Assembly (NCBI GenBank): GCA_946803715.1
Contig: CAMPET010000297.1
Location: 1,961 to 65,960, forward strand
DNA: 64,000 nt
Direction: 5' to 3'
Source of the DNA: Beroe ovata
Taxonomy: Eukaryota > Ctenophora > Nuda > Beroida > Beroidae
How positions within the stretch are numbered: the stretch's first letter is position 1; each line of letters opens with the position of its first letter. The notes under the pieces are model-generated. The model searched no databases. It saw only the letters and a list, made by a program, of their open reading frames with translations, and was not told where the DNA came from. Positions 7,843-45,778 of the stretch are shown piece by piece. Position numbers and translations under genes: made by a program.

Positions 7843-7900
7843 ATGAAGTTTGGCACAGGATGTTTCCTGTTCTCTCTCTTACTATCACTGACAGCGGCTG
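7843..7900 (+). other. Signal peptide exon of paralogue B
   Basis: The exon encodes MKFGTGCFLFSLLLSLTAA, a short basic start and a hydrophobic core ending in small residues, then splices at GTAAGT in phase 1. This is a classical secretory signal and fixes the gene start. Confidence 0.85.
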
Positions 7901-22900: not shown

Positions 22901-25900
22901 GTGTCCCATTGATTTTCATGATTTGTATGTTTTGCTTCCCACGGGTTTGAAATCGTGATTTGGGCGTGGTTTTATGGCGAGTATGAACTCGACATGATCG
23001 TATAAAGGGATGATACTTGTAGTATGATAGTAAGAGAGATGATCTGGTGAAAAATTAGTGTCGTAAGTGCCGTTAAAGACTTCATTAGAGACCTCTAAAA
23101 ATGGAGTACAAAAGTGTGGAGTTCACCGATTACACTCAGATCTCGGATCGAAAGTACGAAAAAATATATTTGGACTATTTCCATACAAAAACATTGATTC
23201 CTATGTATTTTTGGACACTGAATCGATTCTCGGTCGAATTTTAAGCCTATCTCACTTCCCTGAGGCTTTATTCAAATACGCAATGCTCATGATGTAAACA
23301 GTGGAATAATCCTAAATCCAGTATCAATTTCAGATGAGAAAGCTGCGTGTCCTGGTCTGAAACTTTCTGGTATTGAGCAGACATCTCAGAACACTCACAA
23401 CATGTACAGGAGAATGCATGAGAACACTCCGGACCTGTGCTACTCTCAGGAGGTGGCAAAAACTGCAAAGTCCTGGGCAAAGTATCTCGTAGAGAAGGGA
23501 ATGTTCAAGCCCAGTACCACCAGCTACAGAGCGGATAGGGGAGAAAACCTCATGAAGTACGAACACTGGGACCTCCTGAGTGATGACTCCTACATAAACA
23601 ACGCCATTGAGTCCTGGTACAACACAGGAGCACAGTACTCTCATAGTGATCCTTCCAGCGCTCTCATGTTCACTCAAGTGAGTAGCTAATCGCAAATTGT
23701 ACTCCTCAGAAGTTCAAAATGTGATCCGAAACAGATTATAAAAAAGATGGTCCTCGCTTTTTCCAGATTGTCAGATCATATAACTTATACACTCAGGTTG
23801 TCTGGAAACTAACATCGAAAGTTGGCTGTGCAGTCGAGAGTAGCAGAGCTTCAGCAACAGATAAATACACAGTTGTGGTGGTGTGCCACTATGCAGCAGC
23901 AGGGAATGTCGAGGGCAAATTCACTGATTACGTCACAGACAGGAGTGAGCTTATCTTCAAAAAGTTGATCATCCCAGAAAGTCGTCAGAGAACTCCTCAT
24001 ACATATCTTCGGTCAATAAACTCTTATTTCAGAATCACAGCAACACAGCGTAGCCAAGTCCATAACATCAAGGAGTGTTCCGGTCAATGTGTTCGTTGAT
24101 TCTCGAGCTGCTCAGATCGTCAAACAGGATGCCCCGTCAGACTCAGGTGAGAAGAACGTGAAATACGGTTTGTGTCACCCAACATACCATCTTCCACAGA
24201 TTTTACGGTTTCTGACACCCGCGTCCGTCTACTCCCTTATCATACCACCTCAGAATCATGAGGTTATGCTCTTACTCATCATTTCTCACATCAGTCCTCT
24301 ATGCGTATAGGTGCTTGTACAAGAACAGCCAAACCTATCACGGGATGCACCGATAACACTCAAGTTGCTGATCCAGCCACTATCAGGTTTATGGATTGGA
24401 AAATAACTTTCGAAAGAATCGAGTTCCGTGCGGAGACCGTACTGTTTCAGCCCCTATTATTTACACAAATTCTACCCCTCAGCTACATCTACAACGTCTG
24501 TCAAACTCCCAAGATAACCGGAGTCACTCCCAATGCGGCAGAGGGAGGATTCTTCTGGAACAATGTCATCACCATAACCGGATCAGGTAGCAATTGGCAG
24601 CTAGCCAAACACTAGGATCACCAAAGTGATAAGAATCTCTTATCTTTTTGGTGACCAAGAATTCATCAATATAGGGAAGGAGGATTCGTAAAAATCATAA
24701 TCATCATGCCCAGGATTCGCAAAGAAGCTGTGTGGAAATACTGTAAAATTGGGAGAGTACAGTTGTGTTGTACAGACCTCATCAGACACTCAGATAACCT
24801 GTCTACCGGACCAGACCAGCGAATCTCCCAGTAACACCAAGCTGCAAGCCAGTGTCCACGTGTATGGTACGATGTCATGAGATGAAAAGAGACTTTCCTT
24901 ATGTTATGTTTCTGACGAATACAGCAGCTTGACATTCCTTGAACTAGAATTAGTTCCTTGAACTAGAAGTGATAATTAATGCCATGGTCCAGGTCGAGGT
25001 GACGCTGTTTTTGAGGGCAAGGACGTTGAAGACACCTTCACCTACATCAAACCATCGATCACAGCTATGGACGTGACTGAGGGATCTCTGAAGGTGGGGA
25101 GTACAGAAAAATGCGAATGTATTTAAAATGACATGACAGAATAAAAACTACGTTTTAAAGCCACCTCTGAATGAAAACCATGTCTAATGTTGCAGGGAGG
25201 TCGAAACATCGTGGTCAGCGGAGGTGGATTCAAGGACAGCTCTGTTTTCTCCGATGGTAGGCAGATAATAAGAGTCATTGAGTTATGCAGAACACCTAAC
25301 TCTTAACTCTCTATTGACTTCACCGACATTTTGATAAAAAGAAGAGAGCAAAAGTTCGATCCCATCACACTCACAATCACTATCAGGAGTTACCGAATTC
25401 GAGGTTGTAGCCTTGTCATGGGGACAGGCAACTGTCAGAAGTAGAACTGGAGTCCCAGATACTGCTGATGTCACCAAAACAATCACCGTCAGTAAACATG
25501 CCAAATAATTTGAGTAAATTTGAGAAATAACTACGATGATCATTTATCGATGATCATTGATCAATGATCAAATATTTTGATGGTCAGAACTGTAAGTAGG
25601 ATTAAATATTTTGATGGTCAGAGCAGCTGTGGGCGGAGGCCGAAGTGTGCATATCATTCATTGATACCCAATATTCACTCTGACACGTCCTTGTTCAGAT
25701 GACACAAGATAGTGTGCCCGTAGCATGCCCGGAAACAGTCTGTGACTTCACTTACAAAGTGGACAAGACTGCTGTCATTAGTGTGGTTACAGTGACTAAG
25801 GGTGCAGCTGGTGACGACTTTACTGTGGCTCTTACTGGGGCTTATCTCTGCGGGTAGGTCTTTACTGAAGGAATCCAAATTCCAAAGTTTTCAGCAAAGT

Positions 25901-28900
25901 GCTGATGAATGAATTTCAACTATCTAATTCAATAATTATTCCAATTTATAATCTATCTACAGAGACGACGACCAAACTGTGAGCCTGTCCGGCAACTACC
26001 AAGGAACATGTTCAAACTGCGGTTCTACATCGGCTGAGTGTACTGTGGCCATCACATCATCTGGAAGCTACTCTCTGTCCTTTACAAACTCCAACGGATA
26101 CGCTAGAATCCCATCAAATCTGAGAAATATCGATATCCAATATGAGGTTTGTGCTCAGTAAACACAATTCACCCGTTTTTCGGATAAGATCAAATGAATG
26201 CTGGACATTTTATTGCGACATTATTATAGAGCACTGTACCCTCACAACGTTATTCTCAGGTCACTGAGATCACCCCGAGAGTTGGTAGTGTATACGGTGG
26301 AACAACTGTTCGCATACTGGGATCTACTCTCCCCGCTTCCACTACAGTTTCAACTGCTAATGACGTGGGAGTGGTGGCAGCAAGTTCGTCCAATGAGATT
26401 ACCTTCACAACAAGCTCAGCACGACAGGTATTGTTATTAAGAGCATGCCAGACCCAAAGACAGCTTTCCCAATCTATCTTTGTCAGTTTATCAATAATCA
26501 ATTCATCATGTTTTCAGGTGATGTCCGCATCGAGAAATAACATGAAGTTAAACGGTAATCCAATCGTAATTGCCGGAGCAAAGCAGGTGTTCGAGTTCAA
26601 CACAGAGAAAACCCCCACTATCACTTCCATCAGCCAGACATCAGGTTAGCATATCCAGCCATACCTTCCCTCAAGACGTTAGAGTTGACATCACTAACTA
26701 GACCTAGTCGTGACGTCACCCATAACAACTATATTTCTCAGTAACAAAAGATGACGTCATAACTATCACTGGATCCAAGTTCTCTGGGGTCAATACAACC
26801 GGAGTGTCAGTTGATCTGGGTGAGATATCTTACAAACTGACTTTCAATACAAACACAATCATGTCGCATAACTTCATTTCAATAAATCATTAAAATCCCC
26901 AGTTGAAAACCTGGAATCAGCGATCGCATGCTCGGGCTCAGTTCTATCAATTGATTGCGGAGATAAGTTCATCAGCTTACAGAAGGCTCACTATGGAATC
27001 CTACCGTTTACCTCAGCATGCAATGTTTTGTCAGATGGAAATCCAGGGTGCAGTGCACCAGACTCCTTTGCCGTGAGTCACGGAGACATCTCGGTTTTGC
27101 AACTGATCAAAAGTCTACAAGAATTGATTTGTGTCAGACCCAAGACATAGATGCTAAACTCAAAATGATATTTTGAATTCCCAATAATCTTCAGATCGTG
27201 AGAGACCAGTGTGACGGCAAGACATCCTGCTCGATCGGGGCATACAACTTCATCTTCTCGGACCCATGTACTGGAAACAGGAAGTATCTGTCAGCTTCCT
27301 GGGAATGCGTTGCTGTGCCCAGACCAGCTCTGGAAAACGAGAGTGAGTTTGCAGATCAAAGAGATCAGTACTGTGGATAGATCTTCATTGAGAAATCTCT
27401 GTCTTGAATGATCCCACATCTTATTGAGGTCAAGCTTGAAACTTCAAACCATTCAAATGTTTACAGGAGCAGAGTTGATATCAGAAAGTTGTGCTATCCA
27501 AAGTTCAACCGAAACGGAGATACAGTGCCAAGTTCCCAACTTGAGGAAGATAGGAGACTTCAAAGTTGTGGTAGGTGCAATGAGAAGGAACCTAGTTTTC
27601 TGACAGCTTGATAACATAACGTTTCCGACTTCATGACCCTGAGTTCTGACCAGGTCAAAGTTGATCCATGGGGATTCTCTAACTCAGACAAAACAGTTAC
27701 CTATGCCATGACATTGGATGAAACTGTACCAAGTAGTGTTGTAAGTGGGCACCTTGGTGGCCCAAAAGTTCAAATAAAGGGTAAGTCATGAGTCGAAAAT
27801 CTTGCACAAGAGGAATATGGAGTGATTCCTGTACCTCCTAAGATGAATTTGGAACTAAATCTCACAGTCAGCAACTAGGTAACCACTCCTGTACAGGCAC
27901 TGGATCAATGAGCATCGCTAGCATCGAAGTGTGCGACATCTCAGTGGAATACTCCTACGATGTGACTAGTGATGAGACTCGATTCTCGCTTCCAGCTTGT
28001 CCCAGTGACAAATGCCCTGGTGGAACAGGATCATGTTACATGAAGGTTTGTGTAATAAGATCAAGTGTTGATCATATGGAGGTTTGCACACAATGCTATG
28101 GTTGGAATGAGCTCAGAGTAGAATTCAATGATCATGATGATAATCGTCAAATTGGCAGCCATGTTTCCTGCTTATCTCGATATCAATGTCCAGGTTACAG
28201 ATTACAATGGAAATGTCATGCACAAGACAGATTATGTGTCGTATAAGTCCTCAGCTACCCCTGTCATCACATCCATCAGTCCTTCTGACGCAGGGACAGG
28301 CGGAGGAAAAGAGGTAGAAACCCTCCTCGCGTTATGCTAAACTTGGGAATCTTATTTCGCAAAGAATCAGGGATTAGCTACTGAATCACGGTGCTAGAGT
28401 CTGGTTTGTAATATATCACCTACTTTCAGATAACCATCTCTGGGTCAGCCTTCTCTTCTGACAAGACAAAGATAGAAGTCAGTTTCGATGGTGTTCCATG
28501 CACAGTGGTATCAGCATCCGGCAGCAAGGTTAGGATGATAAAACTTATCTTAACATTTCAAAAGCATTCATAGCTGAGTCATCACTCATCATCACAAACA
28601 TACTTTTATCAGATTGTCTGTACAACTGGAGCTAAGACCGACCTGTCGAACAAAGACGGGGTTCAGTTGACAGTTGGTGAAAGCGTAGCTGACAACAGTG
28701 TTGGAGCAACCATGACCTACATGGACAAGTGGAGTTCACCGTACACGTGGGGTGGAGATATCAACAACAAACCCGTGGAGGGAGACTTGGCAGTCATCCA
28801 GAAAGGTAATTTCAGAAGATTGTGGATCAAATCATGATAAGGAACGTGCAAGCTGATAAATCATGATTCGGTTTAAAATCACGCGATAAATATATAAACT

Positions 28901-31900
28901 TATCGCAGGTCAGATAGTGTACTTGGATGAGAGTCCACCACTTCTGAAGGGTATCCTGCTAAATGGGGGGCATCTCATATTCGATGATAATCAAGACATC
29001 AAACTCATGATGGAATACATGATCATCCTTGGCGGTGGTTCCCTAGTCGTGGGGACAGAAGAAAATCCGTTCCAACACAATGCTGAGATTGAGATGCATG
29101 GGCATCAGCAGTCAATCGAACTCCCTATGTATGGAGCGAAGACCATAGCAGTAAGGAATGGTGAGTTATCGTTCCTGAGGAGACGGCATATATCTTCAAA
29201 TCATCTTGGAGATGAATGTGTCCTACATATTCTGAGATGGTTCTTAATGTCTGTACTCACAGGTACCGTTGACCTACACGGAATGCCAGTAACGCCCACA
29301 TGGGGTGAACTTGGAGCAACTGTTGAGGCTGGAAGTGACACAATCACCATCAATCAGAGGACGAACTGGAAGGTACAGGAAGAATCCCATGCTGAAACCT
29401 CTGCTAATCCTCCATTTTCATTGATAAATCAGTTTTACCGACAAATTTCCTAGAATTACTTAATTCACTACCAATATAATATGCAACATTGCAGGTTGGA
29501 GACGAGATTGCCATTTCATCATCAAGCTTTGCCCCTGAAGAACACGAATATAACCAGATCAAGAGTATATCCTTTGATGAGACGTCTGGCATAACAACAA
29601 TCCAGCTTGAAGCTGCCCTCCTTTTCAAGCACATCTCAACGGAAACAACAGCAAATGGCCAGACCATCAAGACAGCAGCTAAGGTACTAGTGGATAAGCA
29701 ACAATTTCTAGATGCAAACGTATTGCCTTGTAATGGCGATGAAATAAACAATTGTTTTTCCTAAACTATTGTTTCTCCTTTTCTGGAAAGCAGTCACTAT
29801 TCACTCTCGTCCAACCAGATTGGACACTTGACGAGGAATGTTAAGATGAGGGGTAACGTGAATAAAGATCATCTNCATGGACAAGTGGAGTTCACCGTAC
29901 ACGTGGGGAGGAGATATCATCAACAAGCCAGTGGAGGGAGACTTGGCAGTCATCCAGAAAGGTATGGAGTAATTTCTGAAGTGCCATGGGGTTTGATCAT
30001 TATTCAATACTTCCAAGTTTATTTCATGAACAAACTTTTGTAGGTCAGATAGTGTACTTGGATGAAAGTCCACCACTTCTGAAGGGTATCCTGCTAAATG
30101 GGGGACATCTCATATTCGATGACAACCAGGACATCAAACTCATGATGGAATACATGATCATCCTTGGCGGTGGTTCCCTAGTCGTGGGAACAGAAGAAAG
30201 TCCATTCCAACACAATGCTGAGATTGAGATGCACGGGCATCAGCAGTCCATAGAGCTCCCTATGTATGGAGCGAAGACCATAGCAGTTAGGAATGGTGAG
30301 TTATCGTCCCTGAGCAGACGGCAGATATCTTCAAATGATCTTGAAGATGAATGTGTCCTACACATTCTGCGATGGTTCTCAATGTCTGCACTCACAGGTA
30401 CCGTTGACCTACACGGAATGCCAGTAACGCCCACATGGGGTGAACTTGGAGCAACTGTTGAGGCTGGAAGTGACACAATCACCATCAACCAGAGGACAAA
30501 CTGGAAGGTACAGGAAGAATCCCATGCTGAAACCTCTGCCAATCCTCCATTTTCATTGATAAATCAGTTTACCGACAAATTTCCTAGAATTACTTAATTC
30601 ACTACCAATATAATATGCAACATTGCAGGTTGGAGACGAGATTGCCATCTCATCATCAAGCTTTGCCCCTGAAGAGCATGAGTACAACCAGATCAAGAGT
30701 ATATCCTATGATGAGACATCTGGCATAACAACAATCCAGCTTGAGGCTGCCCTCCTTTTCAAGCACATTTCAACGGAAACAACAGCAAATGGCCAGACCA
30801 TCAAGACAGCAGCTAAGGTACTCGTGGATAAGCAACAATATCTAGATGCAAACGTATTGCCTTGTAATACAAGTGGGGATAAAATAAACTATTGTTTTTC
30901 CTTAACTATTGTTTCTCCTTTTCTGGAAAGAAGTCACTATTCTCTCTCGTCCCACCAGATTGGACACTTGACTAGGAATGTTAAGATGAGGGGTAACGTG
31001 AATAAAGATCATCTCGAGAAGATTGATGCATGTCCACAATCATTTAACCCCGACCAGTTTGCTACCCAAACCTGCTTCCAAGGGAGATATGGTGGGTTGA
31101 GACTTAGAATTTCACATTGAGAGGCTTGAGATTACCATATTGATGGGCAATTTCATATCTTACTTTGATTATTGTGACCATAACATCAAGTTATTATATA
31201 GGAGAGGAGATGGACAGTGACCAGTTCGGATCCCAGATCATGTTCCATGCAGCTGAGATTGGGACAAGAGAAGTCCATGGGAGACTGGAGAATGTTGAAG
31301 TCACATGGGCCGGTCAAGCTTTCAGACTTGGCAGATATCCAATCCATTTCCATATGAATGGGGATGTTTCTGGAAGCTATGTCAAGTATGTTGAAACCTG
31401 TAGATCATCTAACAGATGTTATGAGTCATCATCTTAATCAAAATTTTCCCCACGAATATGTCCTTCAACCACACGGCAGTCTCCTGCTTATAAACTCAAT
31501 TCCACAGAGGATGTGCTGTCCATCACACTTTCAACCGGGCTGTCACTGTCCACGGTGTAGACAACTTGCTGGTGGAGAACAATGTTGCTTACAACAACAT
31601 GGGGCATGCGTTCTTCTTGGAAGATGGCATCGAAGAGAACAACATCTTCAGGGGAAACCTGGCTATCTTCACAAGATCTAGTTCTTCTCTACTCAACGTT
31701 GATGTAACACCAGCATCCTTCTGGATTGTGAACCCTGTGAACACATTCGAGAACAACGTGGCTGCCGGATCAACTCACTTTGGATTCTGGTTCAACATGC
31801 CCAAGCATCCTGGTGGTCCATCATTTACTAAGGAAGTATGCCCGCGAAACAAGGGAATGCTGAAGTTTGATGGAAATGAGGCCCACTCTTGTGGACGTTA

Positions 31901-34900
31901 TGGCAAGTTCTATCATCGCTATTCAGCTAGAATTTGAATTGAATGTGCATATCAATATTAATTCGTCTAAACCTAACAAATTCAGGGATCTGGGTCTGGG
32001 AGTTCTGGAATCCGAAAGGAAATGGAAGCTGCGAGGCAACAGAACCACAAATGACAACACTCGAGAACTTCCACGGATGGCACAACTTGAAGGGAGTCGA
32101 GATTGAAGATGGTTTGTAGCCCAAGTTTGGACTAGAAACTTCAAATTAGAGGGCTGCTACTATGATGCTTGACCAAACAATTTCCAGGAAGCGGCATCGA
32201 AATGAAGGACTTCACTCTTCACGATAACTGGGAATCCCAAGTGGAGGTCCACAAGTGTCCGGATGCGTCATTCGAGGAAGGAAACACCAGGGTAAGGGAA
32301 CGGAAAAACATTTTCATATCATCATGCATGCCTCTCTTAGCTTGCGATGGGTAACAACAAAGTGAATCTCCCTGGCATCACCACTGATATCTACCTTTCA
32401 GTTGACAAACTCGCTCATCATTGCCAAGACGCCCTCGTCCGACGGAATGAACATGAGATACATGGGAGATGCTGTATACAAATGTGGTCTTGGTGTTCTC
32501 ATCCCTGGCAAGGGATACTTCTCGGTCCACGACACCTACTTCAAGGACTTCACAGAGTGTGATGTGTTCAGTGCTTGCGGTGGTTGCAGAGACGTAAATG
32601 TGGGAGGTGAGCAGTGCTCGGATGTGGGAATAAATATCATAGCTTTAACTTATCTGTGGGAATAAAATATCATAGCTATTTCCTTCAGCTTATCTTATCT
32701 GCTGCGAATGTTGTTCACCTACAATAACCGCCTGTCTTTAGGTTTCCCATCGGAATACAGGGGTATCCAATACGAGAACAGCCCTAGGAAGGGGTCATTC
32801 AAATGGGAATTCGAAGCCATCCTCAGAGATCTTGACGGAACTCTCTCTGGCACCAACACACCCAATGGTGTCATTACTCCTGACATGGCAGTCCTCGATA
32901 AGACTTCCTGCTCGGATGTTGTCGGGTGGAATGGAGGTGCTGTCAAGGGCGTGGTGTGTGATTCAACGGTAGGTTTTATACGTCTTTCAAATGTACTATT
33001 TTCATGAATATGATCGATGCGAGTAACCATTTCTCGTAAACTCAATATTACTCCCCCACCTAGACTGATCTCATCCGACTGTCCTGGAACAAGCCCAGTC
33101 TGGAATACCTCATGTTCAAGAACGTGTTCCTGTCCAATTCCCATGGAGAAGTCATGTCTCCGTACATCTTCAAGAGACTCACACATCAACAAGGATGGAT
33201 GGTCACTGTCCCATCAGGTAATCCGTCCTCATGAGTACTCATCCAAGTTAAATAAGTTCATGCTTTCGACGAAAGGGTCGGAAATGTAGCTTCTCATCAT
33301 GTGAAATATGGATAGCCGCAGAAACATAGCATCCTCACAGTAAACATGGTCGAATTAGCCTGGTTATAGTGATCTACTCCAGGGTATGAGTACGAGATGA
33401 GATGGGATACCGATCACAAGTTCACCAACACCTCATTCCAAATGAGCGCTTACTACCCCAAGAACGATGATTATCTCATTATCAAGCAGGAGCTCGCTGA
33501 TGTGAGTTCTATGAGCATATCATGACCAGAGAGAGTATGATGATACCTGGAAACATGGTGGTAGAGTTTGGTAATCCGCTAATTGGTGATAAGTACTATT
33601 ACGTCACATTTTCATTCCCCGCAGAAACCAGACTACATAACCGTTGGTGGAAGTTCCAACAAGAAACTCACTACAATTGAACCGAGCGATGATGCGGGAA
33701 CCTTCACATTCGATGATGAAACCAAGACCCTCTCTCATCTGATCACCGGGAAGGGGATCACAGGATCAAAAGAGTTGCCTATGGACTTGAAGGTGTACAA
33801 GTGCTACTACGCAAACTGTACAGATCCGCATCCAAAGCCTCTACCATCGAACCCTGCAATCAGCCAGAGACCCGAATCGGTAAGTGTAACATCCGGTATT
33901 TATAGTTCCCGATTTACGCATTCCTTATCGACATCAGGCAATATAGTACGTGCGTCGTGCAAGATCAACTCTTTATTTCCGATTATATCCAATTTTCATC
34001 GTGATACAAAGTTTCCCAATCTAACACAACCACCACTCACCAGCCCAAGAGATGGTCTCTCTCAGCTGACTGGATCGGAACAGAGCAAGGTTGGGGTGGA
34101 TTCAATGGCATCTTGCCAGGACCCGGAGATGACGTCATCATTCCGTCAAGCTGGTGGATGGTCTACGATGCTCAGATGGAGGGATTCGGAACGGTTGGTG
34201 ACTCTCATGAGAAATATAACCAGATCTTCAAACTCTAAAATATAGAAGAACAATCTCCGGAAATGAACAATTCTCCTCTGACAGATTTTCGTGTATGGTG
34301 TTCTCGAGTTCTCAAACGAGCGGGACACTCTCCTTGGAGCGAACAGAATTGTTGTTGTGGGCGGTAAGATTGTGTTGGGATGGAAAGAAGAACCTCTCAC
34401 AGTGAAAGCAACAATCAGACTTACTGGAAATAGGAATGACAAGGAATACACAATGAATGACGGCACCATAGTCGGATCTAAGGTAAGTGTCGAATCAAGC
34501 ATTGTCATGGAATTCGGGTTCTCACACTTTCGCTATTAAACCAATTCATTCCTGACGATTGTATCTCAATGATATCTGATTGAGAATCTCCGAATCTAGG
34601 CACTCGCTATCATGGGCTACACAGAGATGCACGCAAAGGTCCCAGACGTCCTCTGGACAACATTGACAGAGGAGGCAGCAGCTGGAACCACAACTATCGT
34701 CCTCAAGGACAATGTTGAAGGGAAATGGAACATCGGGGACGAGATTGCCATAGCGTCCACCTCGTCTCTCCCAGAACAAGCTGAGAAGAGGACGATTGTC
34801 AATGTCGATGGACACACTCTGACTCTTGACTCTCCACTGGTGCACAATCACGAATACTTTGTCGATGAGGTAAGAGTGGAGCAGAACTAGCTGGGTGACA

Positions 34901-37900
34901 TCTATTTTAACTATATTATAGAATAGCACCCGACCCTCTCATTTCTAATTCCATTCGTTGATCCATCAATGACTCATTACTAATTTTACTACTGCAGATT
35001 GATAGCCACAGATATGAGCGAACTGCAGAAGTTGGTCTGCTCACACGACCCATCACAATTGAAGGAGCTGAAGATCAAGGTAACACAAACATCTCATGTT
35101 TCGTCGGCCAAGCGGTCCATGGAATAGACAACAATAACCGATCAATCTCTCATCTCAGGTCATGGAACAAAGTATGGAGCCCGGGTTCTGGTATCAGACT
35201 ACTCCCAGAGGAATGCGGATGGCGATATGGAGTACTACATCCCAGAGGCCATGATCCAGGGAGTCGAGTTCAAGAACTCAGGACAGCAGGGATATCGAGA
35301 CTACTTTGATCCGAGATACTCACTCGCACTCCAAAACACAAACCATGCCAACCCGAGTTATGTAAAGGATTGCTCCGTCAATGTGGGATTCAACCATGGT
35401 ATCGGAATCATCAAGTCTCCAAATGTGGCAGTTTACAACAATGTGATCTATGCTCCACTGGGGTCTGGAGTCATAACCAACGCTCCAAATGTAAGTCCGA
35501 AAAATCAACAAATTGAGACAATTTTTCCAGAGCGATTCTCCAAGGCTCCTAAGTAGACGTGTCAACAATAACCATACTTTTTCCAACATCACAGGTCGAT
35601 ATCCAAGGAAATGCTGTTATCAACATGATATTCTACGGAAACCACGAAGACCCGATTGAAAATGACAACTACTATGTTGATGCCTGCTTCGAGACGTATG
35701 AAACTGACACTGCCATACTAAGGGTTGGTTGAAATGAATCTTATGATGTTACCATCGAATCTCTTGAGTACAAAGGTCCAATCAATCCTCAAGAATGCTC
35801 ATATTTCCCATTATTAATCTCTCTTTCCTATTCAGGGTAATAACTGCGGAGGGAGTGAGCGAGCTTGTTTCTCCACAATGGCCGGCTACGATGACCAATA
35901 CGTGTTCGATAACAATGTTGCTCACGGCTGTCTCTGGGGAATCTTCGTCAGAAAGTGAGTTATTATAGCATGACGTGTATTAGAGTTAGATTAACACCAG
36001 AGCTCTCACTCAGTTGGAATCTGATCTCGATTTGAGACTCGCAATATACTGCTAAGCTCACAGTTGGAAACACTCCAGATCCAACAAGGATGTGAGTAAG
36101 ATAACGAACAGCAAGATATGGCAGAATCACGACTACGGTCTGATCCACTGGTCGCAATCCTCACTACAAATTGAGAACAGCATCTTTGCTGACAACGGCT
36201 ACTCAATCTTCCCTCTTATTGTAGGACCTAACCCCAAGAGGTACACACCACGCTGCTCCTTTATAATTCTAATCACAACTTATATGTCCTTCCTGAACAG
36301 AAAGTACCCAATCTATGCTGAGTGTGACAGCATCTAACTGCAGTTGGTAAAATTTCAGTCACAGATACGCTGACAAGTTCTTCAAACTGACGGATACGCT
36401 CATGTACGGTCGTCATCCTGGTAGTCAGTGTAATGAGAGACAGAAAGACAAGCCCATCACTGCTACACTGTCAGGAGAAGCTTACAGTCCACCGCCAATG
36501 GGTAGGAAATATAAGCAGAATCTAGTGAATTCCGATGGCAAATGTGTTACCATGGTAACATGTTTCCGGCCATGATGAACTATGTCCAAATAGTTCACGT
36601 GTTTTTCAGGTCGTGGTCAGGGAAGACTAGGTTTGTATCTTCCAACATTCACCGGCGGTTTCACGCTGTGGCCCAAGATGGGAATCCACACCATTGCCTC
36701 GTACCCGTCCATCAGGGGTCTCACCACCATCTCAGGTAAGATAGTAGTGGAGAGAATTCTACTCAGACATGAAATGTTTCTAAAAATAGCATTGTCTGAC
36801 TCAATCTTATCTTCACAGGAGTAACCTTTGCCAACTTCCAAACCTGTGACGACACGGCCATGATGGATATGTCAAGCCAGGGTGACTTCTTCCACCCCAT
36901 CAAGATGGAAAACATCAACTTTGTCAACACCGATCGAACATCGGACAACTTCCTGTATCTGAGAAACCCCAAACTGGGACTCATTAACCCGTCCGATTGT
37001 GTGGACATGCCGTGTGATGCGAGGAAGAAAGTTCTCATCACAGATATGGATGGTTCTGTTCTCGGCAAGGTGACTATAGAGCTGGACACATGCCACTCCA
37101 TCATGTCTGAACATTCTCATGCCACTTCGCTAATTCCTCGTCAACTTTAGGCCGGAGACATGCTAACCTCGAGATCAGAGTACCAGTGGGATAGCTCTGA
37201 TCAGAGATGGGGCATGGGAGACTACAGACTTCCCAACCAGATGACAACAGCCATGGACGGGTCGAAAATCTCATCATCGACATGGCCATATAAGGGAATC
37301 GACAGAAACCAGAGGGTAAGTATATATCATATGCTGCGATTCGTTTAAAAAATATGGGAATTGACAATTGTCACGATTTCAGTCAATATCAGAACTGACC
37401 ATCGACCAATCAACAATCAGGACTCAGATTGCACATTCAACACAGTCTTCAACATGTACCAATGCTCCGGGATAAACTACAAGATCCTTGTTATTGAGAG
37501 CATGGACGGTGACACAGAAGTGAGACGACTTTCTCCACTGGCCCTGGTGACAGATGACGGCAGTGTGGACCTCATTAACGGTCCCATGGATCACGGCTGG
37601 TGTGGAGGGTGAGTGGGGAATTGTTCTGGAGAAATCATCGTCTGCAAAATCCAATCAAGTGGAGACAAATTACCACTCATGAGTTCCTGATTTGCACATC
37701 CCCCCAGCTACACCTGTCAAGAAAGACTCTCCACATTCTATGCGATGGTCATTGTCGGCAAGACATACAAACTCTACCTGAGCAGTACTCAGCCTCAGAG
37801 CATGAGATACATGCTGCTCGACGCAGCTGAGAATGAGAAGATCCGTCTGGACGTGTGGTATGCCAAGTCTCAGCGACTCGATCTCTACTACGCGGGGCGG

Positions 37901-40900
37901 TATGTTGCTCCGACCAACGCAAAGAAGAAGGCAGATGGAACTTACAGCTATGTAACGAGCAAAACTGTGGAACAGCTGTATCCTCAAATTGATGATAAGC
38001 CGGGAACTAACTACTTCGATTCTAAAGCTCACTGGTTGTCCATGGTCATCGATGGACCCGAGCCATACACCATCAAAACATCGCCCAAGGTAAGCACTGA
38101 TATTTGCCACATTTCAAGAGGTTCATACTTTTTCTATGAGTGTCAAGGACTCTGAAACTGACTATTCTCTATCATCCAGATTGTCCTGTCCCTCACCCTG
38201 GAACCAGTTGACGGCAGTGACTTCTTCGACGAGGACAAGATCGTTGAGAACCTCTCTGCTCTCCTGGGTGTTCCCAAAGAGAAGATCAAGCTGGTGAAGA
38301 TAGTATCGGAGGGCGGCAGGAAGAGGCGATCAGCTGCTCAGGAGTTTGAGGTTGAGATCAGCAATGCTCCTGTGGAGGATGAGGCTGGTATGGATGATGC
38401 CGCTGTCACGACCATGGCAGAGGAACTGACCAAGGCTTCCGAGAAACTCATTGAGGTATGCATGGCTGTTAACAGTCTGCTGACATGTTCAAATTGATGA
38501 ATATGATTCAGATTTGCTCGTATTACCATGGTAACACCTCTCACACCACTCACAGTCAGTACAACAAGGAACGCTGGGCACAGCTCTTGATGCCAATGTA
38601 GATGATGTAGCTGTGGAGGTACCTGAGGTCCCACCCAAAGCACCTGAGAAGATGAGTCAGGAAGATGCTGGTAGGGTGACGGGTGAGACATTCGCTGAGA
38701 AGCAGGAGAAGAAAAAGAAAGCGAAGGCTAAGTCTCAGGGTGTTGTAAAGATTCTGGTGCCTGATTCCTTCAACTTGGTGGATAAATCTGATGTAAGTGG
38801 ATCGAATTTCCACTAAAATTGTCCATTTTCTAGAACCACCATCCAGAATCTCCTATTCAATCTCTCCCTTATTTCAGCAAGCGGAGATGCTCACAAACGT
38901 GGCCGTCACATCCAAAGTTGTGACAAAGAGTGGGGAAGTCGTGCCTCTTCTTGGGGTTGGAGATGGAACGTGGAGAGCTCAGGTGTCGATCAAGTCGGGT
39001 CCAGCCAACGGGCGTCTCCTCGGAACTAAAGAGGTATACGCGGGGTGGAATTAATGCGACTGATTAAGAAACGGATGCCGTCTTATCTTATGACCAGTGC
39101 ACGAGAACTGTTGTTAAGATGCACTGAAAAGGATATTAATAACTTTATACTGTTCAAACAGGTTGAGTTCATCAGTGGATATGGAAACCTGACTGATCTA
39201 CGGATGTCAAGAGCTGGCGCCTACAAACTCAGTCTTCGAGTCGAAAATCAAGGCCCTGTGAGTCATTGCGAAGTCAATAAGGAATGAATTCAAGAACGAT
39301 AAAACTTTAAAGTGGTCCAAAGAGGACATCATTAACCTCCGCAATAAATCACGATTCCGCCTGCAGGTTCCATACGAGATCGACAACCTGGATATCGAGA
39401 TACTCGAGCAGTCCCTAGATAGTCCGTTGAAGAGGGTCATCTTCAACTTTGACGGAAACTATGCTGATGTTGTCGGTAACGATGTTGAAGGTGAGGGCCA
39501 AAACATTAAAACAATTCGAATCTTAATAATAGGAGATACACCGATCCGGAGGATTTATAATTGGGTCATTATAACTTCTCGATCCCAGGTTTCACTGCCT
39601 ATCTGAAAACCTACCTCCAATCCAAATACCCTGACTACTACTTTGATGATATTGATCACTACGCCGGGTCAATTGTAGTGGAGACCACTGTTTCCACCAG
39701 TGCAGCCACTCAGTCAGGTTCGATAGCAATACATAAGATATGTCCCGAAAACTCTGAATGAGAGACGAGAATCTCATCTCAGTCCTTAAAATTTAGTACT
39801 AGACTCTTGTGTCTAGACTAGACCTCAAGACCTGCATGGGCGTTATATCAACCTCTTTTCAGATACGGAAGAGGCAGTCTCTAGAATTAACGAGGACAGT
39901 CGAAACAACGGACTCCAACTCCAGTTTAACGGTCAATCTGTTAGCCTCTCCTCTTTCTCCAAAGACACAAAAGGTAAACGAGTTTTTGAAGTCGAAACTT
40001 TGAGCATACTAGCTAGAGGTTCATATTTTCAATTCTCCACAAGAATCCCCTCCCCCACACTTCTCATGCCCCAGTGAAATCACCCAATGTGGTCGGCATT
40101 GTGGTTCCGGTCCTCATAGCCATGGCTCTGGTCGGGGCTGCTGTCGGCGGTTACTACAAATACTCCACCAGAACTGTCCAGGTATATCATGATATATCCC
40201 ACAAACATGTGCCAAGTCAAAATATAGCGAGATATTTTCAGAAAAAACACCATCTTTTCTTCACAGGTGAATCTTCCTGTGAGAATGACCCACGTAGAGA
40301 AAGCTGCAGAGAAACAGTAAGTTTCTTCCTTGTTTTCATCCAAAATACAAAACTATTGAGTATGTTTCACCACCAAACAAACCCTTGCCCGAATCAAAAG
40401 CAAATACAAAACATGACCCCATCGTGCAGAAGCGGTGAGGGAAGTGTGTACTACAACAACTCAGCCGAGTCACAAGAGTTCACAGGGGTCAGCACTGGCC
40501 AAACATCAGGTGAGGTGGACAATTAATGATCTTGTTAAGAAGGGCGTGGTCAGTGGCAAACAATCAGCGAGATATTAACCCACGCCCTTCTTTCAGTGGC
40601 GAGTGAGCTACGAAGAAGATGTGAGTATTGAAACCTGTGATCGACAAAAACCAAACATCATCTCATCCAAACATATACACATTACACATTCTGTAAAACA
40701 GATTAATTGGCAACTGACCATTCTGTTCTCACCTCTCACGTCTCCCCTCTCCAGCTCTACAATTAGTTTGGGGAGCTATGGGTCGTCAGGAGACCCAGGC
40801 CAGCCCGACCTCGTACACCGATCTGCCTGAAATGGGAGAAACACACCCAGTGGCCGACGATGACGGATGGAGACTGAGGAAACACTCGCTTGCAGGTGAG

Positions 40901-41265
40901 AGTCAAAGTTAGGTGGGAGAGTGGAGAATCGTAGGGGGAGGGAGGGGACTCTTTCTCTCTTAGAGGGTCAGCCCATGACCGGAAAAGTGGAGGTTCATTC
41001 TGAACAGAGAGAAAAAGTCGATATTCAATTTTTTGTGACCTGAAGTAGATTATGAGATTTAGAATATATTAAAGGTAGGTCCTGACAATAAACACCACCT
41101 AATGCCCCCTACTTTCCAGCCTGCACGACCTGTCGACAGAAGAAGAAGACGTGGCCATGCCCCATTTGTCAGGGCCCGCTCTACTGCAGCAAGGAGTGCA
41201 TCGATGGGGACTGGCCCGAGCACCAAAACGTCTGCAGACCCCGGACATCGGGTAGTCAAACGTGA
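7843..41265 (+). CDS. PKHD1L1-like: Fibrocystin-L-like giant transmembrane protein, paralogue B
   Basis: Giant type I membrane protein of the fibrocystin-L (PKHD1L1) class. The start is the ATG at 7843 because it opens a signal peptide and is followed by an in-frame donor; the stop is TGA at 41263-41265. About 90 exons can be traced; with each apparent duplication counted once they give roughly 4,600-4,700 residues, near the vertebrate fibrocystin-L length. Domain order: signal peptide, PAN-like region, TIG, PA14-like, ConA-like region, TIG cluster, CAP, TIG, SUEL lectin, G8, beta-helix, G8, beta-helix, stalk with convertase site, SEA-like domain, membrane helix, MYND finger. TIG, PA14, two G8 and beta-helix repeats are typical of fibrocystin-L; CAP, SUEL and MYND are additions. 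Two blocks appear twice around N characters and are probably assembly overlaps. Exon coordinates are in the domain entries. Confidence 0.85.
8073..8604 (+). other. N-terminal PAN/apple-like region of paralogue B
   Basis: Exons 8073-8253 and 8534-8604 encode a region with EEAQAVC, GDDCGGVTYH, KYTLRRG and SWRKIC. The pattern of a Cys in a helix, then C-GGVTY, then a YTLR strand resembles PAN/apple-type modules of marine invertebrate surface proteins. Domain identity is tentative. Confidence 0.45.
8257..8303. repeat. Short intronic tandem repeat with CACGTG cores
   Basis: Three near-identical 16-bp units (ATATATCACGTGAC type) lie just after the donor at 8254. Two contain the palindromic E-box CACGTG and one has CACATG. 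Confidence 0.6.
8881..8972. repeat. Degenerate GTGTGATC-type tandem repeat in an intron
   Basis: Repeated variants of GTGTGATCA and GTGCGATTAAGT fill the start of the intron after the exon ending at 8878. No coding role is seen. Confidence 0.6.
10608..10608. other. Assembly gap (N) inside a TIG exon
   Basis: A single N lies between C-rich sequence and the exon segment reading TEVVCTTPA. The 5' part of this TIG exon may be missing or mis-joined here. Confidence 0.8.
10897..11932 (+). other. PA14-like domain of paralogue B
   Basis: Exons 10897-11052, 11163-11310, 11413-11658 and 11809-11932. The sequence has YYIRMRFYLNI, FKGKLFVSTDNNP and SLLEAGRVYYVELV followed by RVGFGL, the pattern of PA14 beta-barrel domains. 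Vertebrate fibrocystin-L carries a PA14 domain at a comparable N-terminal position. Assignment is by pattern. Confidence 0.6.
12053..13097 (+). other. Cys/Trp-rich extracellular region of paralogue B (possibly ConA-like)
   Basis: Exons 12053-12173, 12329-12413, 12588-12709, 12795-12899 and 13003-13097. It includes DFENRNLVSWRDYREPYCG, FYYELAYQDTSYNW and KMFIGIDIDTFG, alternating strand-like segments that suggest a beta-sandwich. I do not recognise the domain with confidence. Confidence 0.45.
13223..14561 (+). other. Extracellular linker region of paralogue B, exons 13223-14561
   Basis: Exons 13223-13367, 13471-13561, 13666-13741, 13886-14014, 14139-14326 and 14456-14561 keep one open frame. 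Features include paired cysteines (SHLCDN, VECAAD, LGCGYDFP) and strand-like stretches, with CGATDCSYTYTSDKTPVV leading into the TIG cluster. This may hold further Ig-like modules; no family is named. Confidence 0.5.
14680..16445 (+). other. TIG/IPT cluster of paralogue B
   Basis: Exons 14680-14859, 14969-15061, 15159-15235, 15308-15491, 15658-15746, 15901-16038 and 16244-16445. Repeated TIG signatures: SDISIAGSGFGSDKSLITV, RTISPASGSIGG then TVVTISGEGFD, RIEPAAGSV then GGTPVKISGSGL, and NSIAPEQGSVVGGTRVTL then GAGFGTDNSLI. Introns often split a TIG domain after the GG. The exons from 15308 on are repeated after the N at 20638. Confidence 0.8.
15255..15268. promoter_or_regulatory. X-box-like palindrome GTTACCATGGTAAC
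   Basis: A perfect 14-bp palindrome in the intron after the exon ending at 15235. It is the same sequence as 36546-36559 and 49243-49256. Confidence 0.4.
16548..18960. repeat. Intronic tandem array of ~553-bp units, first copy
   Basis: The motif ATGAAGAAAATTATTTTG recurs near 16548, 17101, 17644 and 18197, so the unit is about 543-553 bp with roughly four or five copies, the last diverged. The array fills the intron between the exons ending at 16445 and starting at 18998. Ns at 17566 and 18288 interrupt it; after 18288 about 80 bp of the preceding sequence is repeated. Each unit holds similar minus-strand open frames, which I treat as a by-product of the repeat. Confidence 0.85.
18998..19598 (+). 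other. CAP (SCP/TAPS) domain of paralogue B, first copy
   Basis: Exons 18998-19341 and 19451-19598. The domain opens with the helix HNMYRRMHENTPDLCYSQE, then AKSWAKYLIE, GENLMKYE and AIESWYNTGAQYSH. The spliced signature FTQVVWKLTSKVGCA matches CAP motif 1, and VVVVCHYAAAGNVEG matches CAP motif 2. CAP domains are usually secreted sterol- or protein-binding modules; here the domain lies between TIG domains of a membrane protein. The first His (H of HNMY) and E of GENL sit at the usual CAP tetrad places. Substrate unknown. Confidence 0.88.
19700..20547 (+). other. Post-CAP linker and TIG domain of paralogue B, first copy
   Basis: Exons 19700-19813, 19994-20069, 20164-20267 and 20395-20547. Joining 20069 to 20164 gives ATISYIYNVCQTPKITGV, leading into the TIG start PNAAEGGFFWNNAITITGSG. 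The last exon ends the module with CVVQTSSDTQITC. Confidence 0.7.
20638..20638. other. Assembly gap (N) at the duplication boundary
   Basis: The N cuts into the TIG exon homologous to 15308-15491: only its last part is present after the N, with no acceptor. The sequence before the N matches the end of the second block near 24945, as expected for unmerged overlapping contigs. Confidence 0.85.
22061..23250. repeat. Intronic ~553-bp array, second copy
   Basis: About two units plus a diverged one, with starts near 22063 and 22615. They lie in the intron between exons 21421-21622 and 23334-23677 and are homologous to the array at 16548-18960. Confidence 0.8.
23334..23944 (+). other. CAP domain, second copy
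   Basis: Exons 23334-23677 and 23797-23944 match the first CAP copy in length and phase and keep both CAP signatures. A few residues differ (for example YLVEKGMF in place of YLIEQGMF). If the block is an assembly overlap, this is the other allele. Confidence 0.8.
24993..26819 (+). other. Mid-ectodomain TIG region of paralogue B
   Basis: Exons 24993-25093, 25196-25256, 25387-25487, 25699-25853, 25963-26146, 26260-26427, 26518-26644 and 26742-26819. TIG signatures are SITAMDVTEGSLK then GGRNIVVSGGGFKD, VTEITPRVGSVYGGTTVRIL, and TPTITSISQTS then DDVITITGSKFSG. A Cys-containing stretch, CSNCGSTSAECTVAI, lies between them. Confidence 0.75.
25551..25570. repeat. Perfect 20-bp palindrome
   Basis: TGATCATTGATCAATGATCA equals its own reverse complement. 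It is intronic, just before a direct repeat of AATATTTTGATGGTCAG (near 25572 and 25605). Function unknown. Confidence 0.7.
26903..27342 (+). other. SUEL-type (galactose/rhamnose-binding) lectin domain of paralogue B
   Basis: Exons 26903-27072 and 27195-27342. The order SIDCGDKFISLQKAHYG, then C, then GCSAPDSFA, then DQCDGKTSCSI, then DPCTGNRKYLSASWEC fits the SUEL lectin family, including the AHYG strand and the DPC-G--KYL signature near the end. These domains bind D-galactose or L-rhamnose sugars; ligand not known here. Confidence 0.85.
27467..28528 (+). other. Exons between the SUEL lectin and the first G8 domain
   Basis: Exons 27467-27570, 27654-27780, 27897-28045, 28194-28313 and 28430-28528. 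The last two hold a TIG domain: PVITSISPSDAGTGGGKE joined to ITISGSAFSSDKTKIEV and ending GVPCTVVSASGSK. The earlier exons are Cys-containing and unassigned. Confidence 0.65.
28613..31091 (+). other. First G8 domain region of paralogue B (block seen twice)
   Basis: Exons 28613-28805, 28909-29160, 29263-29372, 29495-29683 and a start at 29818; then, after the N at 29875, repeated exons 29876-29961 (partial), 30044-30295, 30398-30507, 30629-30817 and 30959-31091. G8 features: WSSPYTWGGD with GDLAVIQKG, the run GILLNGGHLIFDD, then HGMPVTPTWGELGATV with VGDEIAISSSSF. G8 domains, named for eight conserved glycines, occur in fibrocystin-L, CEMIP and TMEM2. One G8 copy is expected here if the duplication is artefactual. 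Confidence 0.85.
28720..31015. repeat. Duplicated G8 block around the N at 29875
   Basis: 28720-29874 is repeated as 29876-31015, exons and introns together, with few substitutions. The first copy stops in mid-exon at the N and the second starts in mid-exon just after it. This is the pattern expected from two overlapping contigs abutted without merging. Confidence 0.88.
31202..33879 (+). other. First parallel beta-helix (PbH1-type) region of paralogue B
   Basis: Exons 31202-31385, 31508-31902, 31986-32111, 32188-32291, 32402-32606, 32742-32968, 33064-33217, 33383-33501 and 33625-33879. The short repeated strands with Asn ladders are typical: YPIHFHMNGD, CAVHHTFNRAVTVHGVDN, LLVENNVAYNNMGHAFFLED and EFWNPKG. 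The same arrangement follows G8 in fibrocystin-L and in CEMIP/TMEM2. The His-rich YPIHFHMNG segment is conserved in this superfamily. Confidence 0.8.
31903..31985 (+). other. Intron with a GC donor (GC-AG)
   Basis: The exon ends ...CGTTATG and the intron begins GCAAGT. Only this junction keeps the frame into GIWVWEFWNP at 31986. The rest of the donor matches consensus, typical of minor GC-AG introns. Confidence 0.75.
34044..35079 (+). other. Second G8 domain of paralogue B
   Basis: Exons 34044-34193, 34285-34482, 34600-34869 and 34998-35079. It shows the G8 order: WSLSADWIG, then GPGDDVIIPSSWWMVYD, then VYGVLEFSN with NRIVVVGGKIVLGW, ending with WNIGDEIAIASTS. Two G8 domains, each followed by beta-helix repeats, is the fibrocystin-L layout. 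Confidence 0.85.
35159..38089 (+). other. Second beta-helix region and conserved downstream block of paralogue B
   Basis: Exons 35159-35490, 35595-35723, 35836-35954, 36064-36240, 36359-36501, 36610-36735, 36819-37069, 37151-37315, 37421-37608 and 37708-38089. Beta-helix features include GIGIIKSPNVAVYNNVIY and DQYVFDNNVAHGCLWGIF. From 36610 on, each exon aligns with paralogue A (from 126). The stretch CVDMPCDA-KK is nearly identical in both. Exon 37708-38089 corresponds to two exons in A (1280-1466 and 1597-1791). Confidence 0.8.
36546..36559. promoter_or_regulatory. X-box-like palindrome GTTACCATGGTAAC
   Basis: Perfect 14-bp palindrome in the intron between exons 36359-36501 and 36610-36735. 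A close relative (ATTACCATGGTAAC) is at 38522-38535. Confidence 0.4.
38180..39257 (+). other. Extracellular stalk of paralogue B, with convertase site
   Basis: Exons 38180-38455, 38556-38792, 38878-39033 and 39162-39257. The first exon contains GGRKRRSAAQEF (RKRRS codons at 38318-38332), a furin-type site matching RRKRS of paralogue A. The second exon is rich in charge, with a KKKKAKAK run absent from A. The rest is strongly conserved between paralogues. Confidence 0.7.
39367..39973 (+). other. SEA-like domain of paralogue B, with GSIVV motif
   Basis: Exons 39367-39490, 39589-39718 and 39863-39973. YYFDDIDHYAGSIVVETTV contains GSIVV (codons 39666-39680), the SEA autoproteolysis pattern, in a domain directly before the membrane helix. 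Exon number and phases match paralogue A. Confidence 0.6.
40075..40895 (+). other. Transmembrane helix and proximal cytoplasmic tail of paralogue B
   Basis: Exon 40075-40181 encodes VVGIVVPVLIAMALVGAAVG followed by YYKYSTR, a membrane helix with a basic inner flank. Tail exons are 40267-40316, 40430-40509, 40597-40620 and 40755-40895, giving a short polar tail. This part differs strongly from the tail of paralogue A, although both end in MYND. Confidence 0.75.
41120..41265 (+). other. MYND zinc finger ending the cytoplasmic tail of paralogue B
   Basis: The last exon encodes A-C-T-T-C, then QKKKTWPCPIC, LYCSKEC, W-P-E-H and a terminal cysteine, a complete MYND ligand set. Ten residues after the last Cys the frame stops at 41263-41265. 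The QKKKTWPCPIC core is identical to that of paralogue A. Confidence 0.85.

Positions 41266-45727: not shown

Positions 45728-45778
<51 letters not shown>

What the first reader, a model, noticed from the sequence alone, without database searches (positions are those of the whole stretch)
40075..41265. MYND zinc finger fused to the cytoplasmic tail of a fibrocystin-L-like receptor
Directly after a single membrane helix and a short tail, the last exon encodes a full MYND ligand set. The gene upstream has the fibrocystin-L architecture (TIG, G8, beta-helix). I know of no MYND finger in PKHD1 or PKHD1L1 of vertebrates. MYND fingers normally recruit co-repressors or other partners in nucleus or cytoplasm, so this would link a giant adhesion or glycan-binding ectodomain to an intracellular adaptor.
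Basis: partly seen in the sequence, partly recalled or inferred. Interest (0 to 1): 0.9.

Follow-up and report, generated by a model that had tools for sequence, protein, structure and literature searches.

The report
Fibrocystin-L receptor with MYND-finger tail
A giant cell-surface protein of a comb jelly, related to a vertebrate hearing and kidney protein family, ends inside the cell in a MYND zinc finger, and the same ending turns up in sea urchins, acorn worms and a sea anemone but not in the vertebrate relatives seen, so the family may once have signalled into the cell.

Summary
The last exon (41120-41265) encodes a complete eight-ligand MYND finger. It splices in frame, through five GT-AG introns, to the membrane-helix exon of a fibrocystin-L-like gene (7843-41265, 93 exons after cleaning). 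(1) The window also holds the 3' half of a tandem paralogue (1-5029) with the same helix, final MYND exon and intron phases; the assembly search found two fibrocystin-L 3' ends, both with MYND. (2) Between the copies the MYND exon is conserved (pN 0.19) although its synonymous sites are saturated (pS 0.95) and the rest of the tail has drifted (pN 0.54). (3) By motif, 18 of 135 fetched fibrocystin-L proteins end in MYND: 17 of 18 named ambulacrarian entries and Nematostella, but no vertebrate, amphioxus, mollusc or nemertean entry. The organism is a ctenophore rather than a sponge: sister to Bolinopsis, 100/100 support. The likeliest mechanism is a convertase-cleaved adhesion receptor whose MYND tail binds a cytoplasmic or nuclear partner. 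The fusion is well supported; the mechanism is inferred. Whether the ctenophore MYND shares its origin with the others is unresolved, because the domain is too short and the tails differ.

The parts
7843..41265 (+). Fibrocystin-L-like gene (main copy); cleaned model of 93 exons, 4853 aa; some ectodomain exon ends are uncertain
   Evidence: Gene finder and hand correction; Pfam TIG x8, G8 x2, CEMIP beta-helix x2, SUEL lectin, CAP, MYND
7843..7900 (+). First exon, ATG and signal-peptide-like start MKFGTGCFLFSLLLSLTAA
   Evidence: Sequence; no signal-peptide predictor was run
23334..23983 (+). CAP (cysteine-rich secretory) domain exons in the ectodomain
   Evidence: Pfam PF00188, E 1.6e-10; also listed for the Bolinopsis protein
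26903..27342 (+). SUEL-type lectin domain exons
   Evidence: Pfam PF02140, E 1.9e-12
30044..30507 (+). First G8 domain exons (copy on the gap-free stretch)
   Evidence: Pfam G8
31225..31904 (+). First CEMIP beta-helix
   Evidence: PF24606 at C297:33185-33864
35245..35472 (+). Second CEMIP beta-helix segment
   Evidence: PF24606 at C297:37205-37432
38318..38329 (+). Proprotein-convertase-type site RKRR before the membrane helix
   Evidence: Motif 167 residues after a conserved anchor; at 166-172 in 18 of 18 MYND-tailed relatives; somewhere at 120-330 in 109 of 133 anchored family proteins versus 167 of 2740 random windows
40075..40181 (+). Exon with the single membrane helix (in phase 1, out phase 0)
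   Evidence: Hydropathy 2.77 over 19 residues; splice sites
40267..40895 (+). Four short tail exons (40267-40316, 40430-40509, 40597-40620, 40755-40895); GSVYYN at 40440-40457
   Evidence: pN 0.535 against the paralogue
41120..41265 (+). Last exon: MYND finger (41122-41235) and TGA stop
   Evidence: PF01753; pN 0.188, pS 0.953 against the paralogue
1..5029 (+). 3' half of a tandem fibrocystin-L paralogue (5' part not in this window; C297:1-1960 reads N)
   Evidence: tblastn of main frames within 36606-41262
3914..4023 (+). Paralogue TM exon (in phase 1, out phase 0)
   Evidence: first base read from its flank
4117..4539 (+). Paralogue tail exons 4117-4202 and 4316-4539; GNVYSN at 4323-4340
4866..5029 (+). 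Paralogue MYND exon (MYND 4868-4981) and TGA stop
   Evidence: PF01753 33.9 bits; 66% identical to main

Best explanation
This is a ctenophore fibrocystin-L (FPC-L) type receptor whose cytoplasmic tail ends in a conserved MYND zinc finger. Shown: one gene model encodes TIG repeats, two G8/beta-helix units, CAP and SUEL lectin domains, a convertase-type site, one membrane helix, a divergent tail and a C-terminal MYND; a tandem paralogue has the same end; the MYND is under purifying selection; MYND-ended FPC-L also exists in echinoderms, hemichordates and a sea anemone. Inferred: the ectodomain works as a matrix- or glycan-contacting coat or adhesion protein, is cut by a convertase and stays attached, and the tail uses MYND as a protein-binding module that recruits a partner at the membrane or, if the tail is released by intramembrane cleavage as reported for vertebrate FPC, in the nucleus. 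The family most likely had a MYND tail early in animal evolution and vertebrate FPC-L lost it.
For: In-frame GT-AG splicing from helix to MYND in two paralogues with identical phases. The assembly search found two FPC-L 3' ends and two such MYND exons, one each. MYND exon pN 0.188 at pS 0.953; tail pN 0.535, TM exon 0.425. C-terminal MYND motif in 18 of 135 fetched FPC-L proteins, 3-28 residues from the end and after a membrane helix. Convertase site at the same place in 18 of 18 MYND-tailed relatives and in this protein. Vertebrate FPC: convertase cut, gamma-secretase release, tail to the nucleus and mitochondria (review PMC13424714, passages seen).
Against: No transcript. The ctenophore tail lacks the ~80-residue domain that precedes MYND in ambulacrarians and Nematostella, and its first ligand pair is C-x2-C, not C-x-C. 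In a profile of the 18 other FPC-L MYNDs, main ranks sixth and copy1 last of eight test sequences, behind DEAF1 and four of five other MYNDs tested from this genome; independent gain is open. The glutamine that DEAF-1/ETO use to bind peptides (PMC3555993, passage seen) is Ile or Leu here, so canonical ligand binding is doubtful. The same review says that mice lacking the FPC tail show no histopathological phenotype, so tail release is a weak precedent. No partner, localisation or cleavage was tested.
Confidence: 0.6

Rival explanations
1. The fusion is real, but the ctenophore MYND was gained independently of the one in ambulacrarian and cnidarian FPC-L; a zinc-finger exon was captured at the same end of the protein twice.
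For: No pre-MYND domain in the ctenophore tail, different spacing of the first ligand pair; MYND profiles do not join the two groups to the exclusion of other MYNDs.
Against: Same protein family, same extreme C-terminal position; MYND is not common (13 matches found in this assembly, a lower bound); both paralogues here have it; a 40-column domain cannot carry a tree. The chance of repeated gain was not computed.
Confidence: 0.35
2. The MYND exon belongs to a separate gene or is an assembly joint.
For: No transcript; the assembly has single-N joins elsewhere in the gene, with allelic-looking blocks duplicated.
Against: No N between 29876 and 45789; no in-frame Met in either copy; the same arrangement in a tandem paralogue; the same domain order in other phyla.
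Confidence: 0.04
3. The tail is a passive stub: MYND folds and binds zinc but has no partner, and serves only to cap or stabilise the tail.
For: Peptide-contact glutamine replaced in both copies; rest of the tail unconserved.
Against: Positions beyond the ligands are conserved between copies (RQKKKTWPCPIC identical) after synonymous saturation.
Confidence: 0.1
4. The window is sponge DNA and the fusion is a sponge speciality.
For: None found; but no sponge sequence was among the named rows, so sponges were not compared directly.
Against: Bolinopsis is the nearest relative by far and sister at 100/100.
Confidence: 0.02

Closest known systems
Fibrocystin-L (PKHD1L1) of vertebrates
   Same: TIG/IPT repeats, two G8 and beta-helix units, one membrane helix; the listed vertebrate rows are 40-44% identical over the first G8/beta-helix part
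   Different: Human FPC-L has a cytoplasmic end of 8 or 9 residues (PMC11043200, PMC13424714; passages seen); no MYND motif in the vertebrate entries fetched; this protein adds CAP and SUEL lectin domains
Fibrocystin-L-like proteins of echinoderms, hemichordates and Nematostella
   Same: Same ectodomain, convertase site and a MYND finger at the extreme C-terminus
   Different: They have an undescribed ~80-residue domain before MYND and C-x-C spacing in the first ligand pair
Fibrocystin-L-like isoform X2 of Bolinopsis microptera (ctenophore)
   Same: 64% identity over 1459 residues, CAP domain
   Different: The public model (3494 aa) stops before the membrane helix, so its tail is unknown
MYND domains of DEAF-1 and ETO
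   Same: All eight ligands and the tryptophan that packs on the peptide proline
   Different: Peptide-contact Gln replaced by Ile/Leu in this genome; kept in 18 of 18 other MYND-tailed FPC-L
Fibrocystin (PKHD1/FPC)
   Same: Family member with a long tail and Notch-like processing
   Different: Its 192-residue tail has targeting signals; 'MYND' does not occur in the review PMC13424714

Membership tests
Fibrocystin-L (PKHD1L1) family | Multiple TIG/IPT repeats | tested here: met
   8 stretches, E 1.5e-80
Fibrocystin-L (PKHD1L1) family | Two G8 domains with CEMIP/PbH1 beta-helices | tested here: met
   G8 x2 E 1.8e-54, CEMIP beta-helix x2 E 9.3e-56
Fibrocystin-L (PKHD1L1) family | PA14 domain (present in many members) | tested here: not met
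   No PA14 at E 0.01 in the model; PF07691 is also missing from many rows, so I do not treat it as defining
Fibrocystin-L (PKHD1L1) family | Single membrane helix near the C-terminus | tested here: met
   Hydropathy, gene model
Fibrocystin-L (PKHD1L1) family | Very short cytoplasmic end (vertebrate trait) | tested here: not met
   About 160 residues after the helix; many invertebrate relatives also have long tails
MYND zinc finger (PF01753) | Eight Cys/His zinc ligands with MYND spacing | tested here: met
MYND zinc finger (PF01753) | Score above the curated cut-off | tested here: met
   27.0 and 33.3 bits versus 22.7
MYND zinc finger (PF01753) | MYND fold | tested here: inconclusive
   AlphaFold2 on two sequences, mean pLDDT 67.2, not searched further
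DEAF1/ETO-type peptide-binding MYND | Gln and Trp that contact the peptide | tested here: not met
   Trp present, Gln replaced by Ile/Leu (roles from PMC3555993; matching the residues to the columns is mine)
Ctenophore origin | Nearest sequence and tree place are ctenophore | tested here: met
   (one ctenophore relative available, no named sponge)
Notch-like processed receptor (as FPC) | Convertase site before the helix | tested here: met
   (motif only)
Notch-like processed receptor (as FPC) | Intramembrane cleavage and nuclear entry of the tail | not testable with these tools
   Needs protein experiments

The most novel reading that the evidence does not exclude
Fibrocystin-L was from the start of animals a Notch-like receptor: a giant cell-coat ectodomain clipped by a convertase and a releasable tail whose MYND finger docks on co-repressors or other partners; vertebrates discarded that tail from PKHD1L1, and the tail of PKHD1 is a later replacement for an ancestral signalling end.
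Probability: 0.22. Interest if true: 0.85.

Novelty: new variant of a known kind. Interest (0 to 1): 0.62.

Why it matters
The review PMC13424714 (passages seen) calls FPC-L, with its 9-residue end, the ancestral family member and the signalling tail of vertebrate FPC novel. A MYND-tailed FPC-L in a ctenophore, a cnidarian and ambulacrarians suggests instead that an intracellular adaptor end may be old and was lost in vertebrate FPC-L. It gives the family a concrete molecular handle (a zinc-binding protein-interaction module) that can be used to fish for partners in sea urchin or Nematostella, and it bears on what a hearing and kidney-disease protein family first did. Literature searches for MYND with PKHD1L1, fibrocystin-L or G8 domain gave 4, 1 and 0 papers; judged by listed title and the start of the abstract, none of those listed concerns such a fusion. 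One of the 4 was not listed. The library is open-licence papers only.

Tried and rejected
Stand-alone MYND gene: rejected, no in-frame Met in either copy, conserved phases. Assembly chimera at the tail: rejected, no N from 29876 to 45789. Two CAP domains and three G8 units, as the raw model suggests: rejected as real domains, because duplicated blocks (86-92% identical, introns included) meet at single-N joins at 18288, 20638 and 29875. Before the Pfam and homology searches I therefore dropped 12 of 105 exons, re-cut one, and corrected two exon ends near 39033 and 39162 by hand. At least one further exon end is probably wrong: the model ends an exon at 31812 while the CEMIP match runs on to 31904 in the open frame. 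Placing the ctenophore MYND by tree or profile: no answer; that test used only 5 of the 11 other MYND loci of this genome (those that I copied out after a motif match) plus DEAF1. Finding other ctenophore tails: a search with the last 754 residues gave 2 relatives, neither with a MYND. Identifying the pre-MYND domain of the relatives: nothing better than E 0.1 in Pfam or PDB. Fold search: not run, model too weak. The survey of relatives is by motif; only two of them were re-scanned with Pfam. The precomputed Pfam label gives fewer: 7 of the 120 rows listed and 0 of 19. Only 120 of 411 hits were listed, several entries without MYND are partial models without a helix, and no sponge was among the named rows, so the survey is partial. 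Broad paper searches gave no further paper on the fusion in their listings, apart from the review used here.

Full report
WHAT WAS CLAIMED.

A six-frame search of the whole assembly (77.8 Mb, 534 contigs) with PF01753 lists 13 MYND matches; one is at window 41122-41235 (36.2 bits, full profile) and, unexpectedly, another is at window 4868-4981 (33.9 bits) on the same contig. Reading the sequence and a dynamic-programming gene finder that was given the start codon and the stop gave the same exon chain from the helix to the end: 40075-40181, 40267-40316, 40430-40509, 40597-40620, 40755-40895, 41120-41265. Paralogue conservation guided the gene finder for the helix and MYND exons but not for the four between them. 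The five introns between these exons are GT-AG. The MYND frame holds no methionine upstream in either copy, so it needs an upstream exon. The stretch 29876-45789 contains no N, so a G8 domain and the MYND are physically linked without a scaffold joint.

THE GENE. The cleaned model runs from ATG 7843 to TGA 41265 in 93 exons and encodes 4853 residues. Pfam finds TIG (8 stretches, E 1.5e-80), G8 (2, E 1.8e-54), CEMIP beta-helix (2, E 9.3e-56), SUEL lectin (E 1.9e-12), CAP (E 1.6e-10), beta-helix, and MYND (27.0 bits, cut-off 22.7). The raw model (105 exons) had extra CAP and G8 copies, but these lie in blocks 86-92% identical that meet at single Ns (18288, 20638, 29875), which looks like uncollapsed alleles. 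I left 12 exons out and corrected others by hand. Some ectodomain exon ends remain uncertain, for example 31812.

A TANDEM PARALOGUE REPEATS THE ENDING. Window 1-5029 is the 3' half of a second FPC-L gene, matching frames of the main gene within 36606-41262 (whose long output was cut in the middle). Its last exons, 3914-4023 (helix), 4117-4202, 4316-4539 and 4866-5029 (MYND), splice in frame with the same phases: helix exon in 1 and out 0, next exon out 2, next out 1, MYND in 1. The main copy has two extra phase 1-1 exons between. A 282-residue query from the last part of the ectodomain matches only these two genes in the assembly, and the MYND exon matches only these two places: two of two FPC-L 3' ends found carry MYND. 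A third FPC-L stretch on contig C246 (63.6-85.3 kb) covers main 8087-35959 and stops at Ns. It may be the missing 5' part of the paralogue; I did not prove that.

SELECTION. Between the copies (Nei-Gojobori counts) the MYND exon has pS 0.953 and pN 0.188 (47 codons); the tail between helix and MYND has pS 0.76, pN 0.535 (75 aligned codons); the helix exon pS 0.58, pN 0.425 (35); ectodomain exon 38556 pS 0.863, pN 0.306 (77). A second ectodomain exon, 37421, has a lower pN than MYND (0.092, 60 codons) but also a much lower pS (0.331), as after gene conversion. The MYND is therefore kept while the rest of the tail drifts. Small exons give rough numbers, and saturated pS cannot be turned into a ratio.

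NOT A SPONGE. A search of 5.8 billion proteins with the first G8/beta-helix region has as top hit a FPC-L-like protein of the ctenophore Bolinopsis microptera (69% identity, 1222 bits); the next is 44% and 753 bits. The public Bolinopsis model also lists a CAP domain. In a tree of 38 rows (the window protein and 37 of the fetched proteins, chosen by me for breadth) the window protein and Bolinopsis are sisters at 100/100 with an inner branch of 1.35. Identity to Bolinopsis is 64% over 1459 and 42% over 2269 residues, so it is not that species. Only one ctenophore relative was available and no sponge was among the named rows.

MYND-TAILED FPC-L IN OTHER ANIMALS. Of the 135 proteins fetched show the complete motif, 3 to 28 residues from the C-terminus, after a membrane helix with 219-405 residues behind it. 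By the names the sources give, they are 17 of 18 ambulacrarian entries (starfish, urchins, crinoid, sea cucumbers, brittle star, acorn worms; the 18th, Amphiura P0041, ends in a damaged version) and 1 of 2 cnidarian entries (Nematostella; Clytia ends in a damaged version). The motif scan found none in the vertebrate, amphioxus, mollusc, nemertean or the single crustacean entry, nor in the unnamed ones; several of these are partial models without a helix, but helix-bearing mollusc and vertebrate entries also lack it. Seven rows carry PF01753 as a precomputed label; one search confirms it for Saccoglossus and Lytechinus (25.7 and 24.6 bits). In the tree the vertebrate, amphioxus, mollusc and nemertean sequences, with one unnamed long-branched row, form one side of a 100/100 split (13 rows, no MYND), and ambulacrarians, cnidarians, ctenophores and others form the opposite side (25 rows). 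The tree is unrooted, so whether these are two old paralogues is open.

ONE ORIGIN OR TWO? For one: same family, same extreme position. Against or neutral: ambulacrarian and Nematostella tails have a domain of about 80 residues before MYND (invariant R, F, E columns), also recognisable in Clytia by eye, with no Pfam or PDB match better than E 0.1, and C-x-C spacing in the first ligand pair; the ctenophore tail has neither. MYND profiles do not prefer the other FPC-L group: with a profile of the 18, DEAF1 and one of this genome's other MYNDs score 34.3 bits, three more 29.8-30.6, main 29.0, another 26.2, copy1 24.6. The two-sequence ctenophore profile puts ten FPC-L MYNDs on top but mixes the rest (5 of 11 other MYND loci of this genome used). 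I put common ancestry at about 0.6.

HOW IT PROBABLY WORKS. A convertase-type site (RKRR, 38318-38329) lies 167 residues after a conserved anchor; all 18 MYND-tailed relatives have such a site 166-172 residues after it, and 109 of 133 anchored family proteins (4 of 137 had no anchor) have one in the 120-330 range, against 167 of 2740 random windows of equal length. In vertebrate FPC a convertase cut, shedding and gamma-secretase release send the tail to the nucleus and mitochondria; the same review notes that mice lacking the tail show no histopathological phenotype (PMC13424714, passages). By analogy, and only by analogy, the MYND may act at the membrane or after release. MYND domains of DEAF-1 and ETO bind co-repressor peptides using a Gln and a Trp (PMC3555993, passage). 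The Trp is present here; the Gln is Ile or Leu in both copies and kept in 18 of 18 relatives (matching residues to columns is mine). So the relatives are better candidates for canonical peptide binding, and the ctenophore finger may bind something else. Both ctenophore tails also share a G-x-V-Y-x-N tyrosine motif; that it might be an SH2 site is recalled knowledge, untested.

KNOWN OR NEW. Human FPC-L has a cytoplasmic end of 8 (PMC11043200, passage) or 9 residues (PMC13424714, passage). Searches for MYND with PKHD1L1, fibrocystin-L and G8 domain gave 4, 1 and 0 papers; going by the listings alone, none listed concerns such a fusion (one of the 4 was not listed). The proteins themselves are public, so the architecture is present in databases but, as far as these searches reach, not described.

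LIMITS. No transcript; gene model by computation; one ctenophore relative, truncated; 120 of 411 hits listed; structure model of the MYND weak (pLDDT 67.2).

Noticed in passing
window 10608, 17566, 18288, 20638, 29875, 45790, 58461: Single Ns look like scaffold joints; blocks on either side of several of them are duplicated at 86-92% identity (15446-16791/20639-21969, 18289-20627/22626-24946, 28717-29874/29873-31014), most likely unmerged alleles that inflate the gene with false CAP and G8 copies.
   Followed up: yes
P0003, P0021, P0023-P0025, P0030, P0031, P0036, P0037, P0075, P0117, P0001 (C-terminal 145 residues): An undescribed domain of about 80 residues (pattern KLG...LR..L...KPF..L.ETL..IE...EK..V.E.Y..DC.L) precedes MYND in ambulacrarian and cnidarian FPC-L tails; no Pfam or PDB match better than E 0.1.
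   Followed up: partly
tree: FPC-L sequences fall into two groups at 100/100: vertebrates, amphioxus, molluscs and nemertean against ambulacrarians, cnidarians, ctenophores and others. Possible ancient paralogy.
   Followed up: partly
L020-L022 (C246:63600-86400): Third FPC-L stretch covering main 8087-35959 with CAP, breaking off at single Ns and a 1.2 kb gap; possibly the 5' part of the paralogue whose 3' half opens this window.
   Followed up: partly
window 23334-23983 and 26903-27342: CAP and SUEL lectin domains sit among the TIG repeats; CAP is also listed for Bolinopsis P0020 and an unnamed JGI protein P0069, and for no other row listed.
   Followed up: partly
window 16541-18930 and 21968-23271: A repeat family of several hundred bases, tandem here and in both orientations on C246, with a translatable minus-strand frame (CFTGTYETNFSSNHLSYYYTTSINPFYDHVEF...), lying in introns of the model.
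   Followed up: no
window 37421-37608 versus 983-1164: This exon is nearly identical between the two copies (pS 0.33 where the other stretches measured reach 0.58-0.95): a candidate for local gene conversion.
   Followed up: no
window 40440-40457 and 4323-4340: The tails share G(S/N)VY-x-N (GSVYYN, GNVYSN), the clearest shared motif outside MYND; it resembles a tyrosine SH2-type site (recalled).
   Followed up: no
window 43886-44260: Plus-strand open frame with an ATG at 43901, 2.6 kb downstream of the MYND stop: possibly the start of the next gene, unidentified.
   Followed up: no
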